NCBI GenBank assembly: GCA_009787025.1
Contig: WRGT01000064.1
Coordinates: forward strand, 1-45,636
Source: Spirochaetota bacterium
GTDB lineage: Bacteria; Spirochaetota; UBA4802; UBA5550
Reading direction: 5' to 3'
DNA length: 45,636 nt
Shown here one piece after another: positions 9,581-35,668 of this stretch. The notes under the pieces were generated by a model. That model was not told the origin of the DNA, made no database searches, and was given only the letters and a program-made list of their open reading frames with translations. The translations under genes were made by a program, and so were the position numbers. Position 1 is the stretch's first letter. Each line of letters starts with the position of its first letter.

Positions 9581-12124
9581 ATGGATTCAATGAATCAATT
9601 GAGCTATGATTCAAACATTTTGTTCCATTTTGAGCGCCAGCGGTTAAACCAGTTGTTTAAGGAAGCTGTGAAATGTCCGTTAGTCATGGTGTGCGCCGGA
9701 GCAGGCTATGGTAAAACAAGCGCTGTTCGTGATTTTATACGGGAGTATGGGGTAACTACTGCGTGGGTACAGCTTTCTGAACGTGATAATATACCCACGC
9801 GTTTTTGGGAGCATTTTTCCCATACTATTGCGCAGCTCAACAAGCCGTTTGCTCAAGCGATTGTTAAGCTCGGCTTTCCTGACACTGACGACAAATTTAG
9901 TCAGTTTTTTTCAGTTATGCACAAGCATGTGGAAGAGAAACAACATATATTAGTATTTGACGATTTTCACCTCATAGAGAACCAATCCGTACTTCACCTT
10001 GTGGAGTATTTTATCACCAAACGAATGGATGTAACATCATCTGTGTTTCTGATTTCCCGCGCTCTTCCACAAATCAATGTAACAGGTTTGATGTCCAAAG
10101 GACGTGTGTTCAGTATAAGCGAAAACGATCTGTGCTTCATCGAGCCGGAACTCGCTCAATATTTTCGCAGACAGAAAATTCCACTCCGCTCTGACACTCT
10201 GCGCGAGATTATGCAGGATACTGGAGGTTGGGCATTTGCGATTAATCTCATCATGCGGTCTTATCAAAAAGCGCCCGGCTACAGCGGTTATCTGCGCAAC
10301 GCTATGAAGACGAATATATTTAAGCTGATGGAATCGGAAATCTGGAACGGGATATCGGATCGCCTTCAATCATTCTTGATTCGCCTTTCCCTGATAGATC
10401 ATCTGTCCGTTGACCTGATATCTCTTTTGTCTAATGGTGACAAGGAACTGATCATCGAGCTCGAGCGCCAAAACTCCTATGTGCGGCGCGACAGTCAAAT
10501 AAACGCCTATTTGATTCATCATCTGTTTTTAGAATTTCTTTGCCAAAAGCAAAAACTCCTGACAGAGGAACAAAAGAGGGAAACTTATATTATTGGCGCT
10601 GATTGGTGCAACAAGAACGGTTTTAAGGTCGATGCTATGGGCTATTATGAAAAAGTGGGCGACTATGAATCTATTGTGGCTATTTTTTTTGAACTGCCTA
10701 CGCAGGTGCCGTATGACATCGCGTGCTATGCGGCAGATATTTTCAGCAGAACACCTGAAGAGGCGTTTGACAGCGTGGACTTCCTCGCTGCGATGCATGT
10801 GCGCGCAGTCGTTTGTCTGGGTACTTTGGATAAAGCAGTTAAGCTGATGGAATATTACGAGGAGAAATACCAGAAGCTGCCAATAGATAATGTTTTTCGC
10901 AATCGTACACTTGGGGGTATATATTATTGCTGGGGCTTTGCTCGGATGCTCATGTGTACAATAGACCACCGCTACGACTTTGATTTATATTTTGCCAAGC
11001 AGGATTACTGCCTGACAATATCTCCCGGCACCGATCCGGGTCAGCTGGCAAATCATCAAGTCGGTCCGTGGGTCAGTCAGGCGGGTTCTTCCGAAAAGGG
11101 CGCACTGCAAGAGCATATCGATGCCTTGACCCGTTCTATGCATCATGCGTCACATTGCATGAAAGGAACGATGGCAGGAATTGATGATTTGGCTAAAGGC
11201 GAACTCAAGTTCTATCAAGGCGATATTCGCGCTGCAGAACATTTTGTCGTCCGTTCTTTGGAATTTGCGCGGAAACATAGACAATTTGATATTGCTCACA
11301 GGGCGTTATTCTATATGCTGCGGCTCGCAGTTGCGCAGGGAGATTACCTGAAAGCCGAACAGGCAGTGAAAGACATAGAAACTCAATTAGATGAAAGTGA
11401 TTATACAATCCGCTTCGTCACTTTCGACATCGCTATGGGTTGGTATTACTGTGTTCTTAATATGCTTGAGATGGTCCCAGACTGGTTGAAAGAAAAGTTT
11501 ACGCATTATGGACATCCATATTTTATTGAAAATTTTGGAAATCAGGTGAAAGCGCGTTATTGTTACATAACCAAAAGTTATCCGCTGCTACTGGCCTATA
11601 TGCAAGAGTTAAAACATCGTGAATCGATTCTGTTTGGCCGTGTGGAAATGCTGGCTATGGAAGCCTGCGTGCATTACAAATTGAAGAATAAGACAGAGGC
11701 TTTTGCTATTTTAACGGAAGCCTATGAAACAGCATTGCCCAACAGCATTCAGATACCCTTTACCGAGTTAGGCAAAGGTATGCGCACGCTGACTGCCTCT
11801 GCGCTTAAAGATTCCGGCTGCAAGATTCCTAAGTCTTGGTTAGTAGAAATCAACCGCAAGTCCGCCTCCTATGCTAAATACCAGTCTCATATCATTGCAA
11901 TCTATAAACAGGCTAACCGCATTAAGGATGATATTTCCTTTTCTCAGCGGGAACTTGAAATCCTCACGGACATTTGCCACGGACTTTCGCGTACTGAAAT
12001 AGCAGTCGCTCGCAGTCTTTCGGTTAACACGGTAAAAATGGTTATCAACAACATATATTCTAAGCTCGGCGCCGAAAATCTGGCAGATCTTATCCGGATT
12101 GCAGTGGAGCGAAAGCTGGTATAA
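9581..12124 (+). CDS. MalT-like ATP-dependent LuxR-family transcriptional regulator
   Basis: An 847-residue STAND-class regulator. Walker A GAGYGKT lies at residues 40-46 and Walker B ILVFDDFHLI near 125. A long TPR-like helical region occupies about 350-770. A LuxR helix-turn-helix ends the protein (FSQRELEILTDICHGLSRTEIA, then SVNTVKMVINNIYSKLGA). Such proteins sense a ligand through the repeat region and activate transcription after ATP-driven oligomerisation. A strong AGGAGGAGG ribosome-binding site precedes the ATG. The gene is visibly more GC-rich than its neighbours, uses more GC-ending codons, and has a style familiar from Clostridia, pointing to recent transfer. The regulated genes are not obvious; the small membrane protein downstream is the nearest candidate. 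Confidence 0.9.
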   Translation: MDSMNQLSYDSNILFHFERQRLNQLFKEAVKCPLVMVCAGAGYGKTSAVRDFIREYGVTTAWVQLSERDNIPTRFWEHFSHTIAQLNKPFAQAIVKLGFPDTDDKFSQFFSVMHKHVEEKQHILVFDDFHLIENQSVLHLVEYFITKRMDVTSSVFLISRALPQINVTGLMSKGRVFSISENDLCFIEPELAQYFRRQKIPLRSDTLREIMQDTGGWAFAINLIMRSYQKAPGYSGYLRNAMKTNIFKLMESEIWNGISDRLQSFLIRLSLIDHLSVDLISLLSNGDKELIIELERQNSYVRRDSQINAYLIHHLFLEFLCQKQKLLTEEQKRETYIIGADWCNKNGFKVDAMGYYEKVGDYESIVAIFFELPTQVPYDIACYAADIFSRTPEEAFDSVDFLAAMHVRAVVCLGTLDKAVKLMEYYEEKYQKLPIDNVFRNRTLGGIYYCWGFARMLMCTIDHRYDFDLYFAKQDYCLTISPGTDPGQLANHQVGPWVSQAGSSEKGALQEHIDALTRSMHHASHCMKGTMAGIDDLAKGELKFYQGDIRAAEHFVVRSLEFARKHRQFDIAHRALFYMLRLAVAQGDYLKAEQAVKDIETQLDESDYTIRFVTFDIAMGWYYCVLNMLEMVPDWLKEKFTHYGHPYFIENFGNQVKARYCYITKSYPLLLAYMQELKHRESILFGRVEMLAMEACVHYKLKNKTEAFAILTEAYETALPNSIQIPFTELGKGMRTLTASALKDSGCKIPKSWLVEINRKSASYAKYQSHIIAIYKQANRIKDDISFSQRELEILTDICHGLSRTEIAVARSLSVNTVKMVINNIYSKLGAENLADLIRIAVERKLV

Positions 12125-25152: not shown

Positions 25153-26241
25153 ATGCCGGGAATTTATACTCATAACTATATCTTTCGTAAAGCTGTTGAA
25201 AATATAGTTAAAAATAAAAATAAAATTTTTTTAAATAGAAATATAGAAGTTCTGTTCTCTACGCCTGCATATTTTCAGGCAGGACTGTTTGGGGCAATAG
25301 GACCTAACATATTTGATTACATGGAGATAATCAGAAAGGGTAACAGATACTGCAATGAAATATCCTTTGCTCTTCATAATAAAAATTCTAAGACATATTT
25401 ACAGCATTTAATCAATATTGTAATAAGCAATAAGGATATGAGGAGTGAGTGGACATCTTTGCAAAGGAGTTATCTTCTTGGGTATATATCTCATTTAGTA
25501 GCAGATTCATTTGTTCATCCCTATATATTCTTTAGTTCGGGTTTCCCTAATAATATGGAGAAGGATGAGATTAACTTTTCCAAAATAAGAAATCTTAGAT
25601 TTCAGTATAATATTGATAATTATTTTCTCTATAAAGATGAATCAGGCGCTGTTATAAATTCTCTGGGTGAGATGCTGCCTCTTTACACTTTTAAGAATAA
25701 AAAAATTGTATGGCCTGCAATAAAGTATCTTGTACTTGAATCTTTAAAGAGGGATAATGAATCTCTCTTTAAAAAATATTTTAGAGACATTAAAGACAAA
25801 AAAATTGATGGCGATATAGTTTATGTAAAAAATTTTGATAAGATTCCCAAGATGATTCTATACTGCTATAAGCTCAAGAGAACAGATAATCCTAAAGTGA
25901 TTGAGATTCTTGATAAATTGTGTAATAATAAACTTGTATATTCTGATTTTTTTATAAGATATCCGGCTGCAAGGAGAGTTGATGAAGATGCAATGAATAT
26001 TCATCAAGGCAGATGGCAATATCCCGCATTACAAAAGGGGTTTAGGTATGAGTCTGTACTCCAACTGATAAAATCTTCAATTGAACAGATTACCAAAATT
26101 TGGGAGAGCTTTATGCAGTCTGCTTATGATAATAAGCCCTTTGAAATAAATGAGATTCTTTCTTTAAATCCTTATACAGGCGAGAACGGCGTTTATTTTG
26201 AGGATATGAATATTAAAGACCCTGTTAAATTAAAGGTATGA
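25153..26241 (+). CDS. Zinc-dependent phospholipase C family protein
   Basis: A 362-residue protein whose N-terminal third matches the zinc-dependent phospholipase C/S1-P1 fold: MPGIYTHNYI with H7, GPNIFDY with D55, and GYISHLVADSFVHPYIF with H114, D118 and H122, which would bind the metal cluster. The remainder, from about residue 140, is helical and unassigned. No signal peptide is apparent, so a role in internal lipid or nucleic-acid turnover is possible. TATGGAGGATCA upstream is a strong ribosome-binding site. It is a lone gene before the SH3 array. Family members in anaerobes are mostly uncharacterised. Confidence 0.8.
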   Translation: MPGIYTHNYIFRKAVENIVKNKNKIFLNRNIEVLFSTPAYFQAGLFGAIGPNIFDYMEIIRKGNRYCNEISFALHNKNSKTYLQHLINIVISNKDMRSEWTSLQRSYLLGYISHLVADSFVHPYIFFSSGFPNNMEKDEINFSKIRNLRFQYNIDNYFLYKDESGAVINSLGEMLPLYTFKNKKIVWPAIKYLVLESLKRDNESLFKKYFRDIKDKKIDGDIVYVKNFDKIPKMILYCYKLKRTDNPKVIEILDKLCNNKLVYSDFFIRYPAARRVDEDAMNIHQGRWQYPALQKGFRYESVLQLIKSSIEQITKIWESFMQSAYDNKPFEINEILSLNPYTGENGVYFEDMNIKDPVKLKV

Positions 26242-26372
26242 TTTATAAGTATAATGGTTGATGAAAAAAGAAAGAGTTTCGCGCAAGATCGCAGGGGCTG
26301 CAATTTTGCCGCCCGCAATTGTGAAAAAATTTTTACTCGCATAAAAATAATTTAATGAATGATGGAATTTCC

Positions 26373-27515
26373 ATGAAGAAAAAAATAATACTAATCAGCA
26401 GTGTAACTGTAATTACAGCAGCAGGTTTAATTCTGTTTTTAGTTCTGTCAAAAAGTAAAACTTATGAAGAAAAAGAAATTCCCGGAATTATTCAAGACAC
26501 AATTAAACCGAATGATAAATTTGTTGCGGCAAAATCCGGCTTAAATCTTCGTTCAGATTCTGATAAATCGTCAAAGATTATAACTTTAATTCCATTCGGA
26601 ACAAAGGTCGCCATAGAAAAATCAGATGGAAATGAAATATTTTTGGACGGAAGATATGGTAAGTGGGTAAATGTAAAGTTCGCTAATAAAATAGGATGGG
26701 TATTTAGCGGATTTTTATGTGATTTTAAACCTGATACTGTTATAAAACCTGCGGCTGCTTTTTACAGGGATAAATACAGGAAGAGTGGTTACTCTTAGTT
26801 TAAGGAACTTACCCATTTTAAGGATAGTGAAGTATCTATCGAAGAAATTTTAGATAATTATATTGTTTTAAAAACTCCGGCGCCATTGGAAGGTACTATT
26901 GATGCGGGTTGTTTTGTATGGAGATATGATGTAAAGCAAAAAAAATTTTTTGAGGAGGCCTTCTTTAACGAGAAGTTTGATCCACCAATACATCGTTTAT
27001 TTAGAATACATCTTTTATATTTAGATAACGATAAATATCCCGATTTAGTTGCCGTAGATGGATTTGATGGTAATGGGTGGATTTATATTCTACTTGGATC
27101 GGAAAAAGGATTTAAAAGCGTTTTTGATTGGTGGGATAATTGTAGTGATCTTTATGATTATACTGCAGGCTCTTGCGGAGATATGGAATTTGCATGTGAA
27201 AAAATAATTAACCTTGTTGAAGATCCTGGCATTATGTATTTTTTTAGATTCAATTGCGATAAGAGAAAATTTGAGAAATATGCGGAGGGTCAACCTGCTT
27301 TGTCAGATGGCATTATAACATCAATTGATTTAAAAAGCCTGTCTGTTGTCATAAATGATTCAAAAGATACATCATATAAATTCTATAAGGGTTACTCATC
27401 AGGTTGGTCCGCTGAAGAGTTGAAAAAGATGAAATTAAAAAAAGGTGATAAAGTATCACTTAAGTATGTAACTATTGACGGTAAAAAAATAATCATTGAT
27501 ATATGGAAAAAATAG
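26373..27515 (+). pseudogene. SH3-domain protein, copy 1, interrupted by an in-frame amber codon
   Basis: The frame encodes a membrane-anchored N-terminus (KIILISSVTVITAAGLILFLVL), an SH3_3 domain (about residues 45-115) and the C-terminal region shared with the three following paralogues. A TAG at 26796-26798 (codon 142) breaks it between the two halves, yet similarity continues without a gap in the same frame to 27515. The break is thus a single point change, or a sequencing error. The N-terminal fragment alone could still make an anchored SH3 domain of 141 residues. I start at ATG 26373 by comparison with the paralogues. Confidence 0.75.
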
Positions 27516-27572
27516 TAAAAAGAAGAATTAAATAAAATTTAATCTATCTATCTATAGCAGGAGAGAATTCCC

Positions 27573-28688
27573 ATGAAGAAAAAAATTTTATTCAACAGTA
27601 TATTTGTTTTATCCTGCGTTCTATTTCTGTCAACGCATATAATAAATGGAGCAGAGACCGATCAATCAAAAGATAAATATGTTGCGGCAAAGTCCGGCTT
27701 AAATCTTCGTTCAACTCCTGATAAATCGTCAAAGATTATAACTTTAATTCCATTCGGAACAAAGGTCACCATAGAAAAATCAGACGGCAAAGAAATATTT
27801 TTAGACGGAAGATATGGTAAGTGGGTAAATGTAAAATATGATAATAAAACAGGGTGGGTATTCAGCGGGTTTCTCTGCGATTTTAAACCTGATACGGTTA
27901 TAAAACATGTAGCTGATTTTTATAGAAAAAAGAATAGTAATAGTGATAATGAATATATATCAAAGAATAATGGATTGACCCATTTTAAGGACAGTCAGGT
28001 ATCTCTTGAAAGTATTTTTGATAATTATATTGTCTTAAAAGTTCCATTAACTTTAATGGATGGTGATCCATATCAACTTGCTGTTGTATGGAAATATAAT
28101 ATAAAGCATAAAAAATTTTTTGAGATCCTTGAAACCATGGGGCATAAAGCGGATATATTTTATTTAGATAATGACAGATATCCCGATTTAGTGGTTGATA
28201 ATAGTTGCTGTACAAGCTTTATTATAGATTTTTACCTTGGATCGGAAAATGGATTTATAAAGCTTCCTGATTTTTGCGGTGATTATACTTGTGAAGATGG
28301 TCTTTCTTATTATACTGCCGGTTTGTGCGGAGATATGGAATTTGCATGTAGCGGAACAAAATACGACCACAAGACAGGCAAGACAGATGATGCTATTATG
28401 TTTTACTATAGATTCAACTGCAAAACGAAAAAATTTGAAAAATATGCAGAGGGTAAAGTTAGTAGATCAGATGGTAATATAGTATCAGTTGATTTAAAAA
28501 ATATGTCTATTGTTATAGAAGAGGAAAAAGAAAAGTCATATAATTTTTCTGACAAGACTTATGTATTTTATAATCGAAGTAATAAAGATATTAAGGTTAA
28601 AGATTTAAAAAAAGGTGACAAGGTAGAATTTTATTATGTAACTATTGGTAGCAAAAAAACAATCCTTAGCATGCGAGTATATGATTAA
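27573..28688 (+). CDS. Exported SH3-domain protein, copy 2
   Basis: A 371-residue secreted or periplasmic protein. A signal peptide covers residues 1-27 (ILFNSIFVLSCVLFLSTH). The SH3_3 (bacterial SH3) domain follows at about 33-105: SGLNLRSTPDKSSKIITLIP, then GKWVNVKYDNKTGWVFSGFL. The rest is a beta-rich region with YLDNDRYPDLVV, resembling calcium-binding FG-GAP-type turns, and a C-terminal strand block (KGDKVEFYYVTIG). Bacterial SH3 domains bind peptides or cell wall. The start has CAGGAGAG upstream. It is the second of four tandem paralogues and most similar to copy 3. The function is unknown; an envelope or substrate-binding role is inferred. Confidence 0.8.
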   Translation: MKKKILFNSIFVLSCVLFLSTHIINGAETDQSKDKYVAAKSGLNLRSTPDKSSKIITLIPFGTKVTIEKSDGKEIFLDGRYGKWVNVKYDNKTGWVFSGFLCDFKPDTVIKHVADFYRKKNSNSDNEYISKNNGLTHFKDSQVSLESIFDNYIVLKVPLTLMDGDPYQLAVVWKYNIKHKKFFEILETMGHKADIFYLDNDRYPDLVVDNSCCTSFIIDFYLGSENGFIKLPDFCGDYTCEDGLSYYTAGLCGDMEFACSGTKYDHKTGKTDDAIMFYYRFNCKTKKFEKYAEGKVSRSDGNIVSVDLKNMSIVIEEEKEKSYNFSDKTYVFYNRSNKDIKVKDLKKGDKVEFYYVTIGSKKTILSMRVYD

Positions 28689-28753
28689 TTTATGTATAAA
28701 TTGTACAAATCTATAATTTACATAATAACATAGAATCTATGGGGGAAATTTTT
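28686..28753 (+). repeat. Duplicated leader upstream of SH3 copy 3
   Basis: The segment from the copy-2 stop to the copy-3 start is nearly identical to 29843-29909 before copy 4 and includes the 23-nt element (28710-28732) and the ribosome-binding site GGGGGAAA. It shows that the duplicated unit included the regulatory region. Confidence 0.75.
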
Positions 28754-29845
28754 ATGAAGAAAAAAATACTTTTAACCAACAGTATATTTGTTTTAGCCTG
28801 TGTTCTATTTCTGTCAACGCATTCAATCAATGGAGCAGAAACCGATAATTCAAAAGATAAATATGTTGCGCCAAAGTCCGGCTTAAATCTGCGTTCAGAT
28901 CCAAACAAATCGTCAAAGGTTGTAACTTTAATTCCATTCGGCACAAAAGTCGCCATAGAAAAATCGGAGGAAGATGAAATATTTTTGGACGGAAGATATG
29001 GTAAGTGGGTTAATGTAAAGTATGGTACTAAGATAGGGTGGGTATTCAGTGGATTTCTTTGTGATTTTAAACCTGATGCAGTTATAAAAATTGCAGCTGA
29101 TTTTTATAGGGATGAATACAGGAAGTACGAGTGGAAAGAGGGGTGTTATACCAATTTTGAGGATAGAGAGGTTTCTATCGTAAATATTATAGATAATTAT
29201 ATTGTTTTAAGAGTTCCTGCAGCGCTATTGGATATAGCGAAAGTTGATGTTGTGTGGAGATACGATGTAAAACAAAAAAAATTTTTTGAAGCCCATAGTT
29301 ATGGATATACTATAGAAATTTTTTATTTAGATGACGACAGATATCCTGATTTAATTGTTGATACAAGCTGCTGTACAAGCTTTATTATAAATTTTTACAT
29401 TGGATCGGAAAATGGATTTATAAAGCTTCCTGATTTTTGTGATGATTATTATTGTGGAGATGATCTTTCTTATTATACTGCCGGTTTGTGTGGAGATATG
29501 GGAATTGCATGTAATGGAATATATAACAGAAAGACAAGCAAGCATGATAATATTATGTTTTACTATAGATTCAACTGTAAAACGAAAAAATTTGAAAAAT
29601 ATGCAGAGGGTAAGGTTACTGAATCAGATGGTAATATAGTATCAGTTGATTTAAAAAATGTGTCTATTGTTATAGAAGAGGAAAAAGAAAAGTCGTATAA
29701 TTTTTTTGACAAGACTTATGTATTTTATAATCGAAGTAATAAAGATATTAAGGTTAAAGATTTAAAAAAAGGTGACAGGGTAACATTTGATTATGTAACT
29801 ATTGGTGGCAAAGAAACAATCCTTAGTATACGGGTATATGATTAA
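28754..29845 (+). CDS. Exported SH3-domain protein, copy 3
   Basis: A 363-residue paralogue of copy 2 with the same signal peptide, SH3_3 domain and C-terminal region. The last 60 or so residues (for example YNRSNKDIKVKDLKKGD) are almost identical to copy 2, so the pair duplicated recently or underwent gene conversion. The centre carries paired cysteines (DTSCCTSF, then DYYCGDD) shared with copy 2, which may form disulphides outside the cytoplasm. I start at ATG 28754, after GGGGGAAATTTTT; the ATG 15 nt upstream lies before that site. Confidence 0.8.
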   Translation: MKKKILLTNSIFVLACVLFLSTHSINGAETDNSKDKYVAPKSGLNLRSDPNKSSKVVTLIPFGTKVAIEKSEEDEIFLDGRYGKWVNVKYGTKIGWVFSGFLCDFKPDAVIKIAADFYRDEYRKYEWKEGCYTNFEDREVSIVNIIDNYIVLRVPAALLDIAKVDVVWRYDVKQKKFFEAHSYGYTIEIFYLDDDRYPDLIVDTSCCTSFIINFYIGSENGFIKLPDFCDDYYCGDDLSYYTAGLCGDMGIACNGIYNRKTSKHDNIMFYYRFNCKTKKFEKYAEGKVTESDGNIVSVDLKNVSIVIEEEKEKSYNFFDKTYVFYNRSNKDIKVKDLKKGDRVTFDYVTIGGKETILSIRVYD

Positions 29846-29909
29846 TTTATGTATAATTGTACAAATCTATAATTTACATGATAACATAGAATCTATGAGG
29901 GAAATTTTT
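29843..29909 (+). repeat. Duplicated leader upstream of SH3 copy 4
   Basis: Near-identical to 28686-28753, differing by about three positions, with the 23-nt element at 29866-29888 and GAGGGAAA as ribosome-binding site. Confidence 0.75.
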
Positions 29910-30959
29910 ATGAAGAAAAAAATTTTATTCAGTAGTATAAGTGCAACATTAGTCTGTTTCATTTCACTTTTAGTTCTGTCAACACATAGTGTGAATGCGG
30001 CAGAGGGTGATGATAAATATGTTGCGCCAAAGTCAGGCTTAAATCTTCGTTCAAATCCTGATAAATCGTCAAAGATTATAACTTTAATTCCATTCGGCGC
30101 GAAAGTCACTATAGAAAAATCAGAGGGTGATGAAATATTTTTAGACGGAAGATATGGTAAGTGGGTTAATGTAAAGTATGACAATAAGACGGGATGGGTA
30201 TTCGGCGGATTTCTCTGTGATTTTAAACCTGATACGGTTATAAAACCTGTAGTTGATTATTATATGAATTATTTTAAGAAGATATTGGACGTTAAAGATC
30301 GTCCCCATTGGAAGTACAGCGAAGTATCTATTAAAAATATTATGGATAATTATATTATTCTGAATGTTCCAAACGGGATGTATGATAGCGGCAATGTTGT
30401 GTGGAAATATGACACAAGACAAAAAACTTTTTTTGAGGCATGTAAAGAGATATGTAAAGAAGCAATTCTGTATAAGGCAGAACTTTTGTATTTAGATAAT
30501 GACAAATACCCTGATTTAGTTGTTGAACAGGCAAGACATCTTGAATATGCTGATGTAGAGATTTTACTTGGATCAGAAAATGGATTTATAAAGATTTATG
30601 ATACTTCTGATTGTGATATGAATGACGGTTATTTTCTGAGTATAGGTCGTTGCGGAGATATGGAATTAGCCTATGGCGGTGATACTATGCATTTCCTTAG
30701 ATTTAATTGCAGCAATAGAAAATTTGAGAAATATGCAAAGAGTAAAGTTACTGAATCAGATGGTAATATAGTATCAGTTGATTTAAAAAATATGTTTATT
30801 GTTATAAAAGATTCAAAAGATAAGACATATAAATTCTATAAGCATTACCCATCAGTTGCATTCAAATATTTGAAGGAACTGCAAAATGGAGATAAAGTAT
30901 CATTTTCTTATGTAACTATTGATGGTAAAAAAACGATCATTAGCATAGGGAAAAATTGA
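29910..30959 (+). CDS. Exported SH3-domain protein, copy 4
   Basis: A 349-residue paralogue with signal peptide (SSISATLVCFISLLVLST), SH3_3 domain (SGLNLRSNPDKSSKIITLIP) and a C-terminal region that ends like copy 1 (DSKDKTYKFYKHY) rather than copies 2 and 3. It lacks the paired cysteines of copies 2 and 3. The open frame extends 108 nt upstream into copy 3, but the ribosome-binding site GAGGGAAATTTTT points to ATG 29910. It is the last gene of the array; the rimP operon follows behind a promoter and hairpin. Confidence 0.8.
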   Translation: MKKKILFSSISATLVCFISLLVLSTHSVNAAEGDDKYVAPKSGLNLRSNPDKSSKIITLIPFGAKVTIEKSEGDEIFLDGRYGKWVNVKYDNKTGWVFGGFLCDFKPDTVIKPVVDYYMNYFKKILDVKDRPHWKYSEVSIKNIMDNYIILNVPNGMYDSGNVVWKYDTRQKTFFEACKEICKEAILYKAELLYLDNDKYPDLVVEQARHLEYADVEILLGSENGFIKIYDTSDCDMNDGYFLSIGRCGDMELAYGGDTMHFLRFNCSNRKFEKYAKSKVTESDGNIVSVDLKNMFIVIKDSKDKTYKFYKHYPSVAFKYLKELQNGDKVSFSYVTIDGKKTIISIGKN

Positions 30960-31031
30960 TTAAACTGGAGTTAATAAGATTTTTTATAAACAGAGATAAA
31001 ATTTAAACTCTAATTAATAATAAAAAAACAG

Positions 31032-31059
31032 TTGCAAAAAAAAACATATAAATGATAAT
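31032..31059 (+). promoter_or_regulatory. Sigma-70-type promoter of the rimP-nusA-infB operon
   Basis: TTGCAA (31032-31037), a 16-nt spacer, and GATAAT (31054-31059). The predicted start point near 31066 lies just before the hairpin at 31073 and about 47 nt before the rimP start, with no other candidate promoter between hairpin and gene. Confidence 0.65.
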
Positions 31060-31072
31060 GGTTACGGATTGG

Positions 31073-31096
31073 GAGTGGCAGAGCCACTCTTTTTTT
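31073..31096 (+). terminator. Intrinsic terminator/attenuator in the rimP leader
   Basis: GAGTGGC-AGA-GCCACTC, a perfect 7-bp stem with a 3-nt loop, followed by seven T. It ends 16 nt before the preferred rimP start and starts about 7 nt after the predicted transcription start. It may terminate transcripts from the SH3 genes, but must also be crossed by rimP transcripts if the promoter at 31032 is used, so attenuation is likely. NusA feedback is known for nusA operons elsewhere. Confidence 0.8.
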
Positions 31097-31112
31097 ATGT
31101 ATGGGAACGCAG

Positions 31113-31550
31113 ATGCTGAAAAATGATATATTAAACATTATTAACAAAGCAGCTGAAAATTCCGGTTATTTTATTTATGAATCATTTGTCATTTTTAGCA
31201 AGGGAGATGCTAAAATTATAGTTAAAATAGATTCCGAAAGGGTTATATCTCATAATGACTGTGAGATTTATAGCAGGGAATTAAGCCTGCTCCTTGACGA
31301 GAGCGGACTTTTGCCAAACTATTTTCTTGAAATTTCTTCACCGGGAACTAATCGCAAGATAAGGGATACTGAAGAGTTTATAAGATTTAGAAATGCTCCT
31401 GTGAAAGTAGTATATTCATTTGGGGATCAACAGAGAGTAGCAAAGGGTATTCTTTCTGAAATTAATGAAAGTGGTATTGAAATTATAGAAGAAAAGAGTA
31501 AGATATTTATTAATCATGGTGATGTTATTAAAGCCAATTTAGATTATTAA
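31113..31550 (+). CDS. rimP: Ribosome maturation factor RimP
   Basis: A 145-residue protein required for maturation of the 30S subunit. The N-terminal alpha/beta domain holds the DCEIYSRELSLLLDE segment, followed by YFLEISSPGTNRKI, the strongest RimP signature (usually LEVSSPGLDRPL). A small SH3-like C-terminal domain follows. I use ATG 31113, six nt after GGGA; ATG 31101 in the same frame has no site and abuts the terminator. First gene of an operon with nusA (11 nt) and infB. Confidence 0.93.
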   Translation: MLKNDILNIINKAAENSGYFIYESFVIFSKGDAKIIVKIDSERVISHNDCEIYSRELSLLLDESGLLPNYFLEISSPGTNRKIRDTEEFIRFRNAPVKVVYSFGDQQRVAKGILSEINESGIEIIEEKSKIFINHGDVIKANLDY

Positions 31551-32920: not shown

Positions 32921-35668
32921 ATGAAAGCTATTGATGTTGCAACAAAAAATCATATTACTTTTGACGATATCGTTGAAATTTGTAAAGAGCTGAATATTAT
33001 CTGTCAGAATAATGATACCGAACTAAGCGAACATGAAACTTTTCTTGTGGAAAGAAGAATTGAAAGTGTAAAAAAACGTAAATTAGAAGATGCTGAAAAA
33101 GCTAAAAAGAATAAAAAGATTAAGCTAAAGAAGAAAGTTGATTTATCAAATGATATTAGGAAAAAGAAAGGACTTGAATTAAGAGAAGAAAAAGATGATA
33201 TTGATGAAGATGCTATTAGTAGCGGCAGCTATGAAAAGACAGATAAAGTTAAACTTGATGATAAAACTACAATATCAGATAATGCAAAAGAGTTAAACAA
33301 AAAAACTGAAAATAGACCGCAAAAAAATCAGAGTCATAAACCTGACAGGAAATCAGAAAATAAACCAGATGGAAAGCCTCGCTATCAGGGTCAGCGTCAA
33401 TCAGGTCAAGGTTCTTCAGATGGAAAGCCTCGCTATCAGGGTCAGCGCCAATCAGGTCAAGGTTCTTCAGATGGAAAGCCTCGCTATCAGGGTCAGCGTC
33501 AATCAGGTCAAGGTTCTTCAGATGGAAAGCCTCGCTATCAGGGTCAGCGTCAATCAGGTCAAGGTTCTTCAGATGGAAAGTCCCGCTATCAGGGTCAGCG
33601 TCAATCAGGTCAAGGTTCCTCAGATGGAAAACATCGCTATCAAGGTCAAAAACATGAAGGCAGATCAAGCGGAGATAAAGATGGAGGTCAAAGAGGCTTC
33701 GTCAGGAGACCTGTTATTAAAGATGATGTCTCTTCATCAATAGAGATAGATGATCAGGCAGTTAAGAAGACTAAGGGTCTTGATAAGGAGAAGGAGAAAG
33801 AAAAGCATAAAGAGAAGGAGTTTAGAAGATTAAATAAAAAAGAGAAAGAAGAAGCCGAAAAAGCCTTAATCTTAAAGAAGAAACAGAATTTAGAGATAAG
33901 AAGGAATGTTTCACCTGAAAAGATAAATATTACAGAGAGTATAACCGTAGGCGAACTTGCTAAAAAATTAAATATTAAGGCAAGCGAAGTTATTAGTAAA
34001 CTTATGAAGCTTGGAGAAATGGCAACTATTAATCAGGCAATAGATTCTGATACGGCTACGATCCTTGCATCTGAATATAATACTGAGGTAGATGTTGTCT
34101 CATTATTTGATGAGACTGTAATAAAGATTGAACAGGAAGATAGAGCAGAAGATGCTATGACACGTCCGCCGGTTGTTACGGTAATGGGTCATGTTGATCA
34201 TGGAAAAACAAGACTTCTTGATGTAATAAGATCTGCAAATGTAATTGATAGTGAATTTGGCGGTATTACTCAACATATCGGCGCATATACCGTATCGGTT
34301 GGTGATAATAAGAGTATTACTTTTTTTGATACTCCCGGTCATGCCGCTTTTACTACTATGAGGGCGCGCGGAGCAAGTATAACGGATATTGTAATTCTGG
34401 TAGTAGCTGCAAATGACGGCGTAATGCCCCAAACTGTGGAGGCTATCAGTCATGCTAAAGCTGCTAATGTTCCTATAATTGTTGCCATAAATAAAATTGA
34501 TCTTCCCGAAGCAAATCCTGCAAAGGTAAAACAGGAATTGAGTAACTACGGATTAATCCCTGAAGATTGGGGCGGAACTACGCTGTTTGCAGAGATAAGC
34601 GCAAAGCAGAATTTAAATATAGAACAGCTTCTTGAATTAGTGCTTATACAGGCAGAGATGCTTGAACTAAAAGCTAATCCGAAACTTTTAGCTAAAGGTA
34701 CGGTAATAGAATCAAGGCTTGATCCGGGACGCGGAGCTGTGAGTACCGTACTGGTACAACACGGTACGCTTAATATAGGCGATCCGTTTGTTGTCGGCGT
34801 ATATTCCGGCAAAGTGAGGGCTATGTTTGATGATAAGCGGAATTCTATTGAGAGCGCAGGACCGTCAACGCCGGTAGAGATACTTGGTCTATCGGGAGTT
34901 CCGGCAGCAGGCGATCCATTCGAAGGTGTTGAATCCGACCGTATGGCTAAGCAAATATCTCAGAAACGTCTTGAATATAAAAGAATAGAATCTGCCAAGA
35001 AAGTAAGAAAGGTTACTCTTGAGTCGCTTAATGAGATGATTAAAGAGGGCGAGGTTAAGGATCTTAATGTTATAGTTAAAGCGGATGTTGACGGTTCATC
35101 GCAGGCTTTAACGGAGGCTCTGGAGAAACTCTCTAATGAAGAGATCAGGGTAAGAGTTATTCATGCAGGATCTGGAGGGATTAATGATTCGGATGTAATG
35201 CTTGCTTCCGCATCAAATGCAATAATAATAGGATATCATGTCAGACCGACAGGAAAGGTTGCCGATCTTGCCGAGAAAGAAGATGTATCAATCAGATTTT
35301 ATAATATTATATTTGAAGCTACCGATGATATAAAAGCGGCTATGGAAGGGATGTTATCTCCGATATTTGAAGAGAAGGTAATAGGGACAGGCGAGATAAA
35401 GCAGGTGTTTAAAGTATCTAAAGTAGGTTCAATAGCCGGTTCTATATGTATGTCGGGGAAGGTAATAAGAAAGTCAAAGGTTAGAATAATGAGAGACGGA
35501 GTAGTCGTGTTTGACGGACCGCTCGCATCGCTTAAGAGATATAAGGATGATGTTACTGCAGTTGAAGCAGGGCAGGAGTTTGGTTTTTCAACTGAAAATT
35601 TCAATGACATGAAAGAAGGGGATGCTTTTGAAGCTTATGAAGTTATTCAGACTGCTAAAAAATTATAG
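32921..35668 (+). CDS. infB: Translation initiation factor IF-2
   Basis: A 915-residue GTPase that places initiator tRNA on the 30S subunit. The long N-terminal region is lysine-rich and contains five 17-residue repeats (about residues 150-234), followed by a charged helical stretch. An IF2_N domain (ITVGELAKKLNIKASEVISK) precedes the G domain: G1 GHVDHGKT at 423-430, DTPGHAAF as G3, and NKID as G4. The tRNA-binding C-terminal domains are complete. AGGAT precedes ATG 32921; a TTG six nt upstream is less likely. The operon spacing to nusA and rbfA is short. Confidence 0.97.
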   Translation: MKAIDVATKNHITFDDIVEICKELNIICQNNDTELSEHETFLVERRIESVKKRKLEDAEKAKKNKKIKLKKKVDLSNDIRKKKGLELREEKDDIDEDAISSGSYEKTDKVKLDDKTTISDNAKELNKKTENRPQKNQSHKPDRKSENKPDGKPRYQGQRQSGQGSSDGKPRYQGQRQSGQGSSDGKPRYQGQRQSGQGSSDGKPRYQGQRQSGQGSSDGKSRYQGQRQSGQGSSDGKHRYQGQKHEGRSSGDKDGGQRGFVRRPVIKDDVSSSIEIDDQAVKKTKGLDKEKEKEKHKEKEFRRLNKKEKEEAEKALILKKKQNLEIRRNVSPEKINITESITVGELAKKLNIKASEVISKLMKLGEMATINQAIDSDTATILASEYNTEVDVVSLFDETVIKIEQEDRAEDAMTRPPVVTVMGHVDHGKTRLLDVIRSANVIDSEFGGITQHIGAYTVSVGDNKSITFFDTPGHAAFTTMRARGASITDIVILVVAANDGVMPQTVEAISHAKAANVPIIVAINKIDLPEANPAKVKQELSNYGLIPEDWGGTTLFAEISAKQNLNIEQLLELVLIQAEMLELKANPKLLAKGTVIESRLDPGRGAVSTVLVQHGTLNIGDPFVVGVYSGKVRAMFDDKRNSIESAGPSTPVEILGLSGVPAAGDPFEGVESDRMAKQISQKRLEYKRIESAKKVRKVTLESLNEMIKEGEVKDLNVIVKADVDGSSQALTEALEKLSNEEIRVRVIHAGSGGINDSDVMLASASNAIIIGYHVRPTGKVADLAEKEDVSIRFYNIIFEATDDIKAAMEGMLSPIFEEKVIGTGEIKQVFKVSKVGSIAGSICMSGKVIRKSKVRIMRDGVVVFDGPLASLKRYKDDVTAVEAGQEFGFSTENFNDMKEGDAFEAYEVIQTAKKL
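33368..33661 (+). repeat. 51-nt tandem repeats in infB
   Basis: Five complete units of 51 nt (starting at 33368, 33419, 33470, 33521 and 33572) and a degenerate sixth from 33623. Each codes for DGKPRYQGQRQSGQGSS. The copies are nearly identical at DNA level, so expansion is recent and copy number may vary between strains. Confidence 0.95.

What the first reader, a model, noticed from the sequence alone, without database searches (positions are those of the whole stretch)
26373..30959. Tandem array of four exported SH3-domain paralogues
Four neighbouring genes share signal peptide or anchor, SH3 and a C-terminal region with LDNDKYPDL turns. The SH3 portion is nearly identical between copies while the middle has diverged, the pattern expected of proteins with a constant anchor and variable binding surface.
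Basis: partly seen in the sequence, partly recalled or inferred. Interest (0 to 1): 0.5.

Follow-up and report, generated by a model that had tools for sequence, protein, structure and literature searches.

The report
Tandem SH3–partial-propeller envelope proteins
An uncultured spirochaete carries four neighbouring copies of a gene for a probably exported protein with a constant SH3 domain and a changeable second domain; one copy is interrupted by a stop codon, and the set may be a small repertoire of envelope-bound inhibitor-like proteins.

Summary
The array is real. Four paralogues lie at 26373-30959 in a Spirochaetota MAG: export-type signal, SH3_3 domain, a ~185-residue domain with one FG-GAP-like motif (YLDNDxYPDL), and a C-terminal CusF-like OB domain. 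Corrections: copy 1 has an in-frame TAG at 26796-26798; the LDNDKYPDL motif lies in the middle domain, once per copy; SH3 is 84-92% identical, not "nearly identical". SH3 sameness has two likely sources: purifying selection (dN/dS about 0.2) and homogenisation between copies (synonymous differences 0.29 versus 0.50 in the next segment, p=0.002). The later domains evolve at dN/dS about 0.4-1.0: relaxed constraint, no sign of positive selection. Copies are recombinant mosaics. In all five relatives in which both flanking genes were found, these lie side by side without the array. SH3+middle architecture recurs in scattered Spirochaetota; the OB domain and the tandem array were seen only here. 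The middle domain is predicted as three four-stranded blades. XAC2610, an immunity protein against a peptidoglycan hydrolase, is the only match of similar size among 50 printed, but weak. I read the array as envelope-tethered binding proteins, possibly hydrolase inhibitors: a new variant built from known domains, of modest interest.

The parts
26373..27515 (+). Copy 1: hydrophobic signal/anchor + SH3 (26514-26732) + middle domain (26733-27287) + OB (27288-27512), interrupted by TAG at 26796-26798
27573..28688 (+). Copy 2, intact, 371 aa: signal region 27573-27671, SH3 27672-27890, middle 27891-28451, OB 28452-28685
28754..29845 (+). Copy 3, intact, 363 aa: SH3 28856-29074, middle 29075-29608, OB 29609-29842
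29910..30959 (+). Copy 4, intact, 349 aa: SH3 30012-30230, middle 30231-30740, OB 30741-30956
28194..28223 (+). Copy 2 loop (VDNSCCTSFI) aligned with the XAC2610 inhibitory loop; counterparts at 27051-27080, 29357-29386 and 30522-30551; among the most variable stretches
28699..28767 (+). 69 nt covering the leader and first codons of copy 3, repeated at 29855-29923 at copy 4 (97%): non-coding leader is shared too
26242..31010 (.). Approximate extent of the stretch missing between the Zn_dep_PLPC-like gene and the rimP promoter region in five relatives
31071..31091 (+). Terminator-like hairpin just before rimP, also present in the five relatives without the array: it belongs to the rimP leader, not to the array

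Best explanation
A lineage-specific tandem array of exported envelope proteins. Shown: domain order, presence between two genes that are direct neighbours in five relatives (gain here is the simpler reading; loss there is not excluded), mosaic relationships, and interruption of copy 1. Predicted: the folds. Inferred: each mature protein sits in the periplasm or envelope, its SH3 domain tethers it to peptidoglycan, and the middle three-blade partial propeller binds a partner through loops that differ between copies. The most likely partner class is a peptidoglycan-acting enzyme, so that these work like inhibitors of the XAC2610/PliI/Tsi1 type. The copies diversified by duplication, relaxed constraint on the binding half and conversion between copies. 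I put the anatomy and history at about 0.9, tethered binding proteins at about 0.5, and hydrolase inhibition specifically at about 0.25.
For: SH3_3 over the cut-off in 4 of 4 copies; predicted SH3 superposes on endolysin and NlpC/P60-type SH3b domains (4krt_B Z 10.5, rmsd 2.1, 65 aligned). The middle domain alone is predicted well (pLDDT 83.7, pTM 0.77) as three four-stranded groups. XAC2610 (4qtq) aligns over 135 residues of a 209-residue chain (Z 6.6, rmsd 5.1) and was the best of 177,635 PDB sequences with one profile (E 0.062). That alignment puts its inhibitory loop on our variable CC loop (loop 165-173 and Tyr170 from passages of PMC10933484). At the column of Tyr170 copy 4 has Tyr, copies 2 and 3 have Phe, copy 1 has Gly followed by Trp. 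Array locus. Mosaic. Recurrent SH3+middle architecture in Spirochaetota.
Against: With a larger profile (22 rows) XAC2610 fell to E 0.37 and integrin alpha-6 became best (E 0.0019), so the sequence signal is the general FG-GAP loop. Z 6.6 is under the value of 8 below which the tool warns of mere common arrangement, and pieces of large propellers score up to 7.9. XAC2610 has three extra residues right after the aligned Tyr, so that column is uncertain, and five relatives I compared by eye (L061, L063, L064, L067, L075) have no aromatic there. No peptidoglycan-hydrolase gene directly adjoins the array (an M23-type gene by eye lies about 10 kb away) and none was recognised by eye in the short flanks of 12 relatives. 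Variation is spread over many loops and strands (mean difference 0.49 in strands, 0.55 in loops). SH3 domains can bind things other than peptidoglycan.
Confidence: 0.4

Rival explanations
1. An ordinary gene amplification with no special function of diversity: redundant exported proteins drifting under relaxed constraint, with one copy already inactivated and the others partly homogenised by recombination.
For: In-frame stop in copy 1; dN/dS 0.39-0.99 after SH3 and no value over 1; absence of the array in 5 of 5 relatives in which both flanks were found; no match to the middle+C-terminal profile in the congener G001.
Against: Three copies keep open frames and complete domain sets at synonymous divergence up to about 1; SH3 and the Cys pair remain under constraint.
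Confidence: 0.35
2. Surface-exposed variable proteins (adhesins or antigens) whose diversity is exposed to hosts, predators or phages.
For: Probably exported, multi-copy, mosaic; two Leptospira plasmids examined carry clusters with SH3 lipoprotein-like genes.
Against: No outer-membrane anchor was recognised by eye. Copies 2-4 each have their own start and signal, so this is not one expression site with silent cassettes. No host association is known to me for the nearest MAG (one search gives its name only).
Confidence: 0.12
3. Periplasmic copper/silver chaperones, because the C-terminal domain resembles CusF.
For: OB domain matches CusF by fold (2qcp Z 8.1, rmsd 2.5, 71 aligned) and weakly by sequence (E 0.0089).
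Against: Below the Pfam cut-off (16.2 and 16.5 bits against 27 in copies 2 and 3). The Trp and Met residues of the CusF stretch NWPEMTMRF have no counterparts in the copies (that these are metal ligands is recalled). No efflux genes recognised beside the array.
Confidence: 0.03

Closest known systems
XAC2610 (X-Tfi; PDB 4QTQ), with PliI-Ah and Tsi1
   Same: Exported; partial-propeller topology of similar size; DxDxxxD-type loop followed by a loop that in XAC2610 is predicted to enter the enzyme's active site; an aromatic at the aligned column in copies 2-4
   Different: No specific sequence relationship established beyond the FG-GAP-like loop; SH3 and OB domains added; no adjoining effector gene; four tandem copies
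Bacterial SH3_3 (PF08239) envelope proteins, e.g. Leptospira plasmid SH3 domain-containing proteins
   Same: Signal or lipobox then SH3, clustered in the two stretches examined
   Different: Those have other C-terminal domains: no match above threshold to the A6 profile among 15 proteins of the two stretches (best i-E-value 0.047 in that small set)
FG-GAP/integrin alpha repeat proteins
   Same: YLDNDxYPDL is of the calcium-loop type; FG-GAP_3 matches 5 of 22 domains at E<=1, best 1.5e-6
   Different: One motif per protein; predicted three-blade domain rather than a closed seven-blade propeller
CusF/SilF and PilY2 OB domains
   Same: Predicted OB fold of the last ~78 residues
   Different: No CusF-type Trp/Met positions; below family cut-off
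Orphan immunity islets (e.g. SAIDI-1 of Salmonella Typhi, which includes an XAC2610 homologue; PMC7400221, passages read)
   Same: Idea of several inhibitor-type genes in one genomic stretch
   Different: Those are several different families; these are four paralogues of one family

Membership tests
Bacterial SH3 domain SH3_3 (PF08239) | Score over the curated cut-off | tested here: met
   4 of 4 copies: 41.2, 52.4, 45.0, 53.6 bits against 27
Bacterial SH3 domain SH3_3 (PF08239) | SH3b fold | tested here: met
   Predicted model of copy 2: 4krt_B Z 10.5, rmsd 2.1, 65 aligned
Bacterial SH3 domain SH3_3 (PF08239) | Binding to peptidoglycan | not testable with these tools
   Needs a binding assay
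FG-GAP/integrin alpha repeat | Curated cut-off in the array copies | tested here: not met
   12.6 bits against 26.9 for copy 1's downstream part; not reported for copies 2-4
FG-GAP/integrin alpha repeat | Several repeats forming a closed propeller | tested here: not met
   One motif per copy; three four-stranded groups predicted
XAC2610/PliI/Tsi1 inhibitors | Partial-propeller fold of the inhibitor | tested here: inconclusive
   4qtq Z 6.6, rmsd 5.1, 135 aligned; other propeller pieces score as high or higher
XAC2610/PliI/Tsi1 inhibitors | Sequence relationship | tested here: inconclusive
   E 0.062 with A5, 0.37 with A6; PliI below cut-off (14.9 bits against 27, copy 4)
XAC2610/PliI/Tsi1 inhibitors | Inhibitory loop residue (Tyr170 in XAC2610; Ser in PliI-Ah and Tsi1) | tested here: inconclusive
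   Aligned column: Tyr in copy 4, Phe in copies 2 and 3, Gly in copy 1; alignment weak and gapped there; residues of the known proteins
XAC2610/PliI/Tsi1 inhibitors | Cognate hydrolase gene beside it (XAC2610) | tested here: not met
   Neighbours are a Zn_dep_PLPC-like gene and rimP-nusA-infB
XAC2610/PliI/Tsi1 inhibitors | Inhibits a peptidoglycan hydrolase | not testable with these tools
   Needs an enzyme assay
CusF metallochaperones | OB fold | tested here: met
   2qcp Z 8.1, rmsd 2.5, 71 aligned, on a predicted model
CusF metallochaperones | Metal-binding Trp/Met stretch and family cut-off | tested here: not met
   alignment; 16.2 and 16.5 bits against 27 in copies 2 and 3

The most novel reading that the evidence does not exclude
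The array is a small chromosomal repertoire of peptidoglycan-tethered hydrolase inhibitors. A constant SH3 module parks each protein on the wall, and a propeller with a changeable inhibitory loop recognises different attacking enzymes. Copies are diversified by duplication and by gene conversion that keeps the anchor alike while the binding half drifts: an envelope-side counterpart of an orphan-immunity array, built from one family.
Probability: 0.17. Interest if true: 0.68.

Novelty: new variant of a known kind. Interest (0 to 1): 0.33.

Why it matters
It outlines an architecture scattered through Spirochaetota (SH3 + single-FG-GAP partial propeller with a nearly invariant Cys pair) that no Pfam or NCBIfam model named as a whole in my scans, and shows a lineage-specific amplification of it with an added OB domain at a housekeeping locus. 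If the inhibitor reading holds, it would give a simple system for asking how wall-anchored immunity-like repertoires diversify.

Tried and rejected
Metal chaperone reading of the CusF-like domain: rejected on residues and cut-offs. Phage or plasmid origin: no match in 50,697 phage records; among 72,556 plasmid records 19 matched, all Leptospira, none covering 80% of the query. PADLOC (5 proteins): one weak hit, copy 3 residues 35-85, E 0.0031, within SH3, treated as shared SH3. PHROGs (3 proteins): one weak amidase hit, copy 3 residues 40-102, also SH3. Rfam over 26000-31300: one sub-threshold match (E 0.24, 31.8 bits against 46.5), ignored. PliI family search in 59 genomes: 3 with E<=0.01, 0 over the cut-off; 0 of 14 control genomes. 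Named-genome scan with copy 2: 122 pattern stretches, no relative. Search with the OB part in 59 genomes: own genome only. PliI-Ah and Tsi1 structures are not in the 50 printed VIA rows, which excludes nothing. Promoter scan: 29 found against 31.2 expected, uninformative. Of the matches I left out of A6, as multi-repeat FG-GAP proteins or doubtful: L068/L103, L069, L071, L072, L073, L104-L108, L114 and the unfetched fragment G035:C269; L074/L111 was in A5 and dropped from A6; L076/L109 duplicate L075.
Full report
What is there. The window is contig C64 of a 1.66-Mb, 73.6%-complete MAG. Its NusA is 89% identical to that of Spirochaetae bacterium HGW-Spirochaetae-5; of 22 NusA loci found, 20 carry Spirochaet- titles, one is an "uncultured bacterium" (72%) and one an Ignavibacteriae fragment (43%). 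Four paralogous genes run from 26373 to 30959 on the + strand, followed by rimP-nusA-infB (rimP by eye). Each has a hydrophobic N-terminus, an SH3_3 domain over the Pfam cut-off, a middle domain with one YLDNDxYPDL-type motif, and a C-terminal domain with weak, sub-threshold CusF or DUF1344 similarity. Copy 1 has an in-frame TAG at 26796-26798 that leaves signal plus SH3 only. No other full copy was found in the own genome.

History. I searched 21 of the 22 NusA loci (all but the Ignavibacteriae one) with the array copies and flanking proteins. None matched any array copy at E<=1e-5. In the five where the Zn_dep_PLPC-like gene was found (L039-L043), it and rimP lie 92 to 344 bases apart; in the other 16 the PLPC-like gene was not found, so they do not inform on the site. 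The rimP promoter-like region and the hairpin before it are conserved on the far side. The array therefore occupies about 4.8 kb that those five relatives lack; gain here is the simpler reading. The congener G001 has SH3 proteins (6 matches) but no match to the middle and C-terminal profile.

Evolution along the length. SH3: protein identity 84-92%, dS 0.29-0.41, dN/dS 0.11-0.23. Next segment (copy 2 residues 107-190): identity 42-57%, dS 0.60-1.02, dN/dS 0.39-0.76. FG-GAP/Cys segment: dN/dS 0.47-0.82. OB: 0.63-0.99. Signal region: 0.24-0.39 where dS is defined. Pooled synonymous difference is 0.289 in SH3, 0.495 in the next segment (permutation p 0.0018), 0.379 in the FG-GAP segment (p 0.088) and 0.308 in OB (not tested). 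So the low divergence of SH3 reflects selection and probably homogenisation; protein conservation alone would not lower synonymous divergence. Copies 2 and 3 differ at 0.538 of synonymous sites in one segment and 0.160 in the following ones (p 0.0002). Of 102 two-against-two sites, 66 join 1+4, 24 join 1+3 and 12 join 1+2; those favouring 1+4 cluster in the 3' half (38 runs, permutation p 0.0004). A 69-nt stretch with the leaders and first codons of copies 3 and 4 is 97% alike. This is a recombinant mosaic. Nothing shows positive selection, and four sequences give little power.

Relatives. A profile of the middle domain finds matches at E<=0.01 in 21 of 392 Spirochaetota genomes, the own one included; some are ordinary multi-repeat FG-GAP proteins. 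I aligned 22 domains (A6): two Asp of the motif and two Cys (GxC, F[DN]C) are conserved in at least 90%; a CC pair is present in 13 of 22 by my count, and missing from copies 1 and 4. Seventeen relatives' proteins were scanned with Pfam over their full length: SH3_3 reached or passed the cut-off in 6 (L064, L067, L075, L098, L099 just at it, L113), was reported below it in 6 (L010, L035, L063, L112, L100, L101), and was not reported in 5 (L062, L066, L070, L117, L102). Thus SH3+middle is a recurrent but scattered Spirochaetota theme, and the domain also occurs without a recognised SH3. A simple lipobox pattern follows the signal in 5 of 19 relatives (L061, L063, L067, L098, L099; L074's match lies inside the domain and is not counted). 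The OB domain was matched only in the own genome among 59, and by eye no relative in A4 has it.

Structure. AlphaFold2 of copy 2 (pLDDT 78.4, pTM 0.71, 12 sequences): SH3 matches SH3b domains of endolysin and NlpC/P60-type enzymes (Z 8.5-10.5), and the C-terminus matches CusF, SilF and PilY2 (Z 6.3-8.5). The middle domain alone (pLDDT 83.7, pTM 0.77, 15 sequences) has three groups of four strands. Foldseek found nothing at E<=0.001. VIA-align's best rows are pieces of large propellers (Z up to 7.9); XAC2610 (4qtq) is at Z 6.6, rmsd 5.1, 135 aligned. It stands out only because its 209-residue chain is the smallest in the 50 printed rows and the alignment spans most of it.

Reading the function. 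XAC2610 is a periplasmic immunity protein against the peptidoglycan hydrolase XAC2609. It shares propeller-like topology with the inhibitors PliI-Ah and Tsi1, and its loop 165-173 with Tyr170 is predicted to enter the enzyme (PMC10933484, passages). Profile A5 aligned XAC2610 best among PDB sequences, E 0.062, with that loop on our CC loop (residue 170 inferred from chain length 214 = residues 54-267). At that column copy 4 has Tyr, copies 2 and 3 Phe, copy 1 Gly followed by Trp; five relatives compared by eye have no aromatic there. But profile A6 lowered XAC2610 to E 0.37 and put integrin alpha-6 first at 0.0019, so I do not claim family membership. The loop differs strongly between copies (mean 0.81, reached by 9% of windows), yet so do several others. 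I conclude that these are envelope-tethered binding proteins, with peptidoglycan-hydrolase inhibition the leading but unproven job, and that plain redundant duplication remains almost as likely.

Novelty. The listings for SH3, tandem, paralogue, spirochaete, lipoprotein and FG-GAP (3 papers), bacterial SH3 and peptidoglycan (15), Leptospira SH3 proteins (12 of 103 shown), HGW-Spirochaetae (10 of 81 shown) and orphan immunity with gene conversion (12 of 35 shown) show no title about this architecture; I saw listings only, so this does not prove absence from print. All domains are known kinds; the combination, the extra OB domain and the tandem mosaic are the new parts.

Noticed in passing
window 26288-26333: Intergenic GC-rich hairpin-like stretch (GGGGCTGCAATTTTGCCGCCC) just upstream of copy 1; partial copies at other places of the own genome (C58, C43 twice, C61, C32): a REP-like repeat at the 5' edge of the array.
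   Followed up: partly
window 33368-33670: The IF-2 gene carries six 51-nt tandem repeats (DGKxRYQGQ...) in its N-terminal region.
   Followed up: partly
window 31030-31100: Hairpin GGAGTGGC..GCCACTC plus T-run directly before rimP, conserved in L039-L043 by eye with a promoter-like stretch before it: a probable rimP leader or attenuator; no Rfam family matched it at E<=1.
   Followed up: partly
L122 and L123 (Leptospira plasmids NZ_CP091938.1, NZ_CP044512.1): Clusters of SH3 domain-containing and other exported-looking hypothetical proteins with TPR proteins and Rpn-family nuclease/transposase genes nearby, in both orientations.
   Followed up: partly
window 9581-12124: A LuxR/MalT-like regulator gene (family name by eye) in a stretch of 44-45% GC, above every other 1-kb step of the window (0.249-0.420), possibly a recent acquisition.
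   Followed up: no
L075, L076 (G095:C1): Two identical 356-codon SH3+middle-domain frames 26 kb apart in one genome, a recent duplication in another lineage.
   Followed up: no
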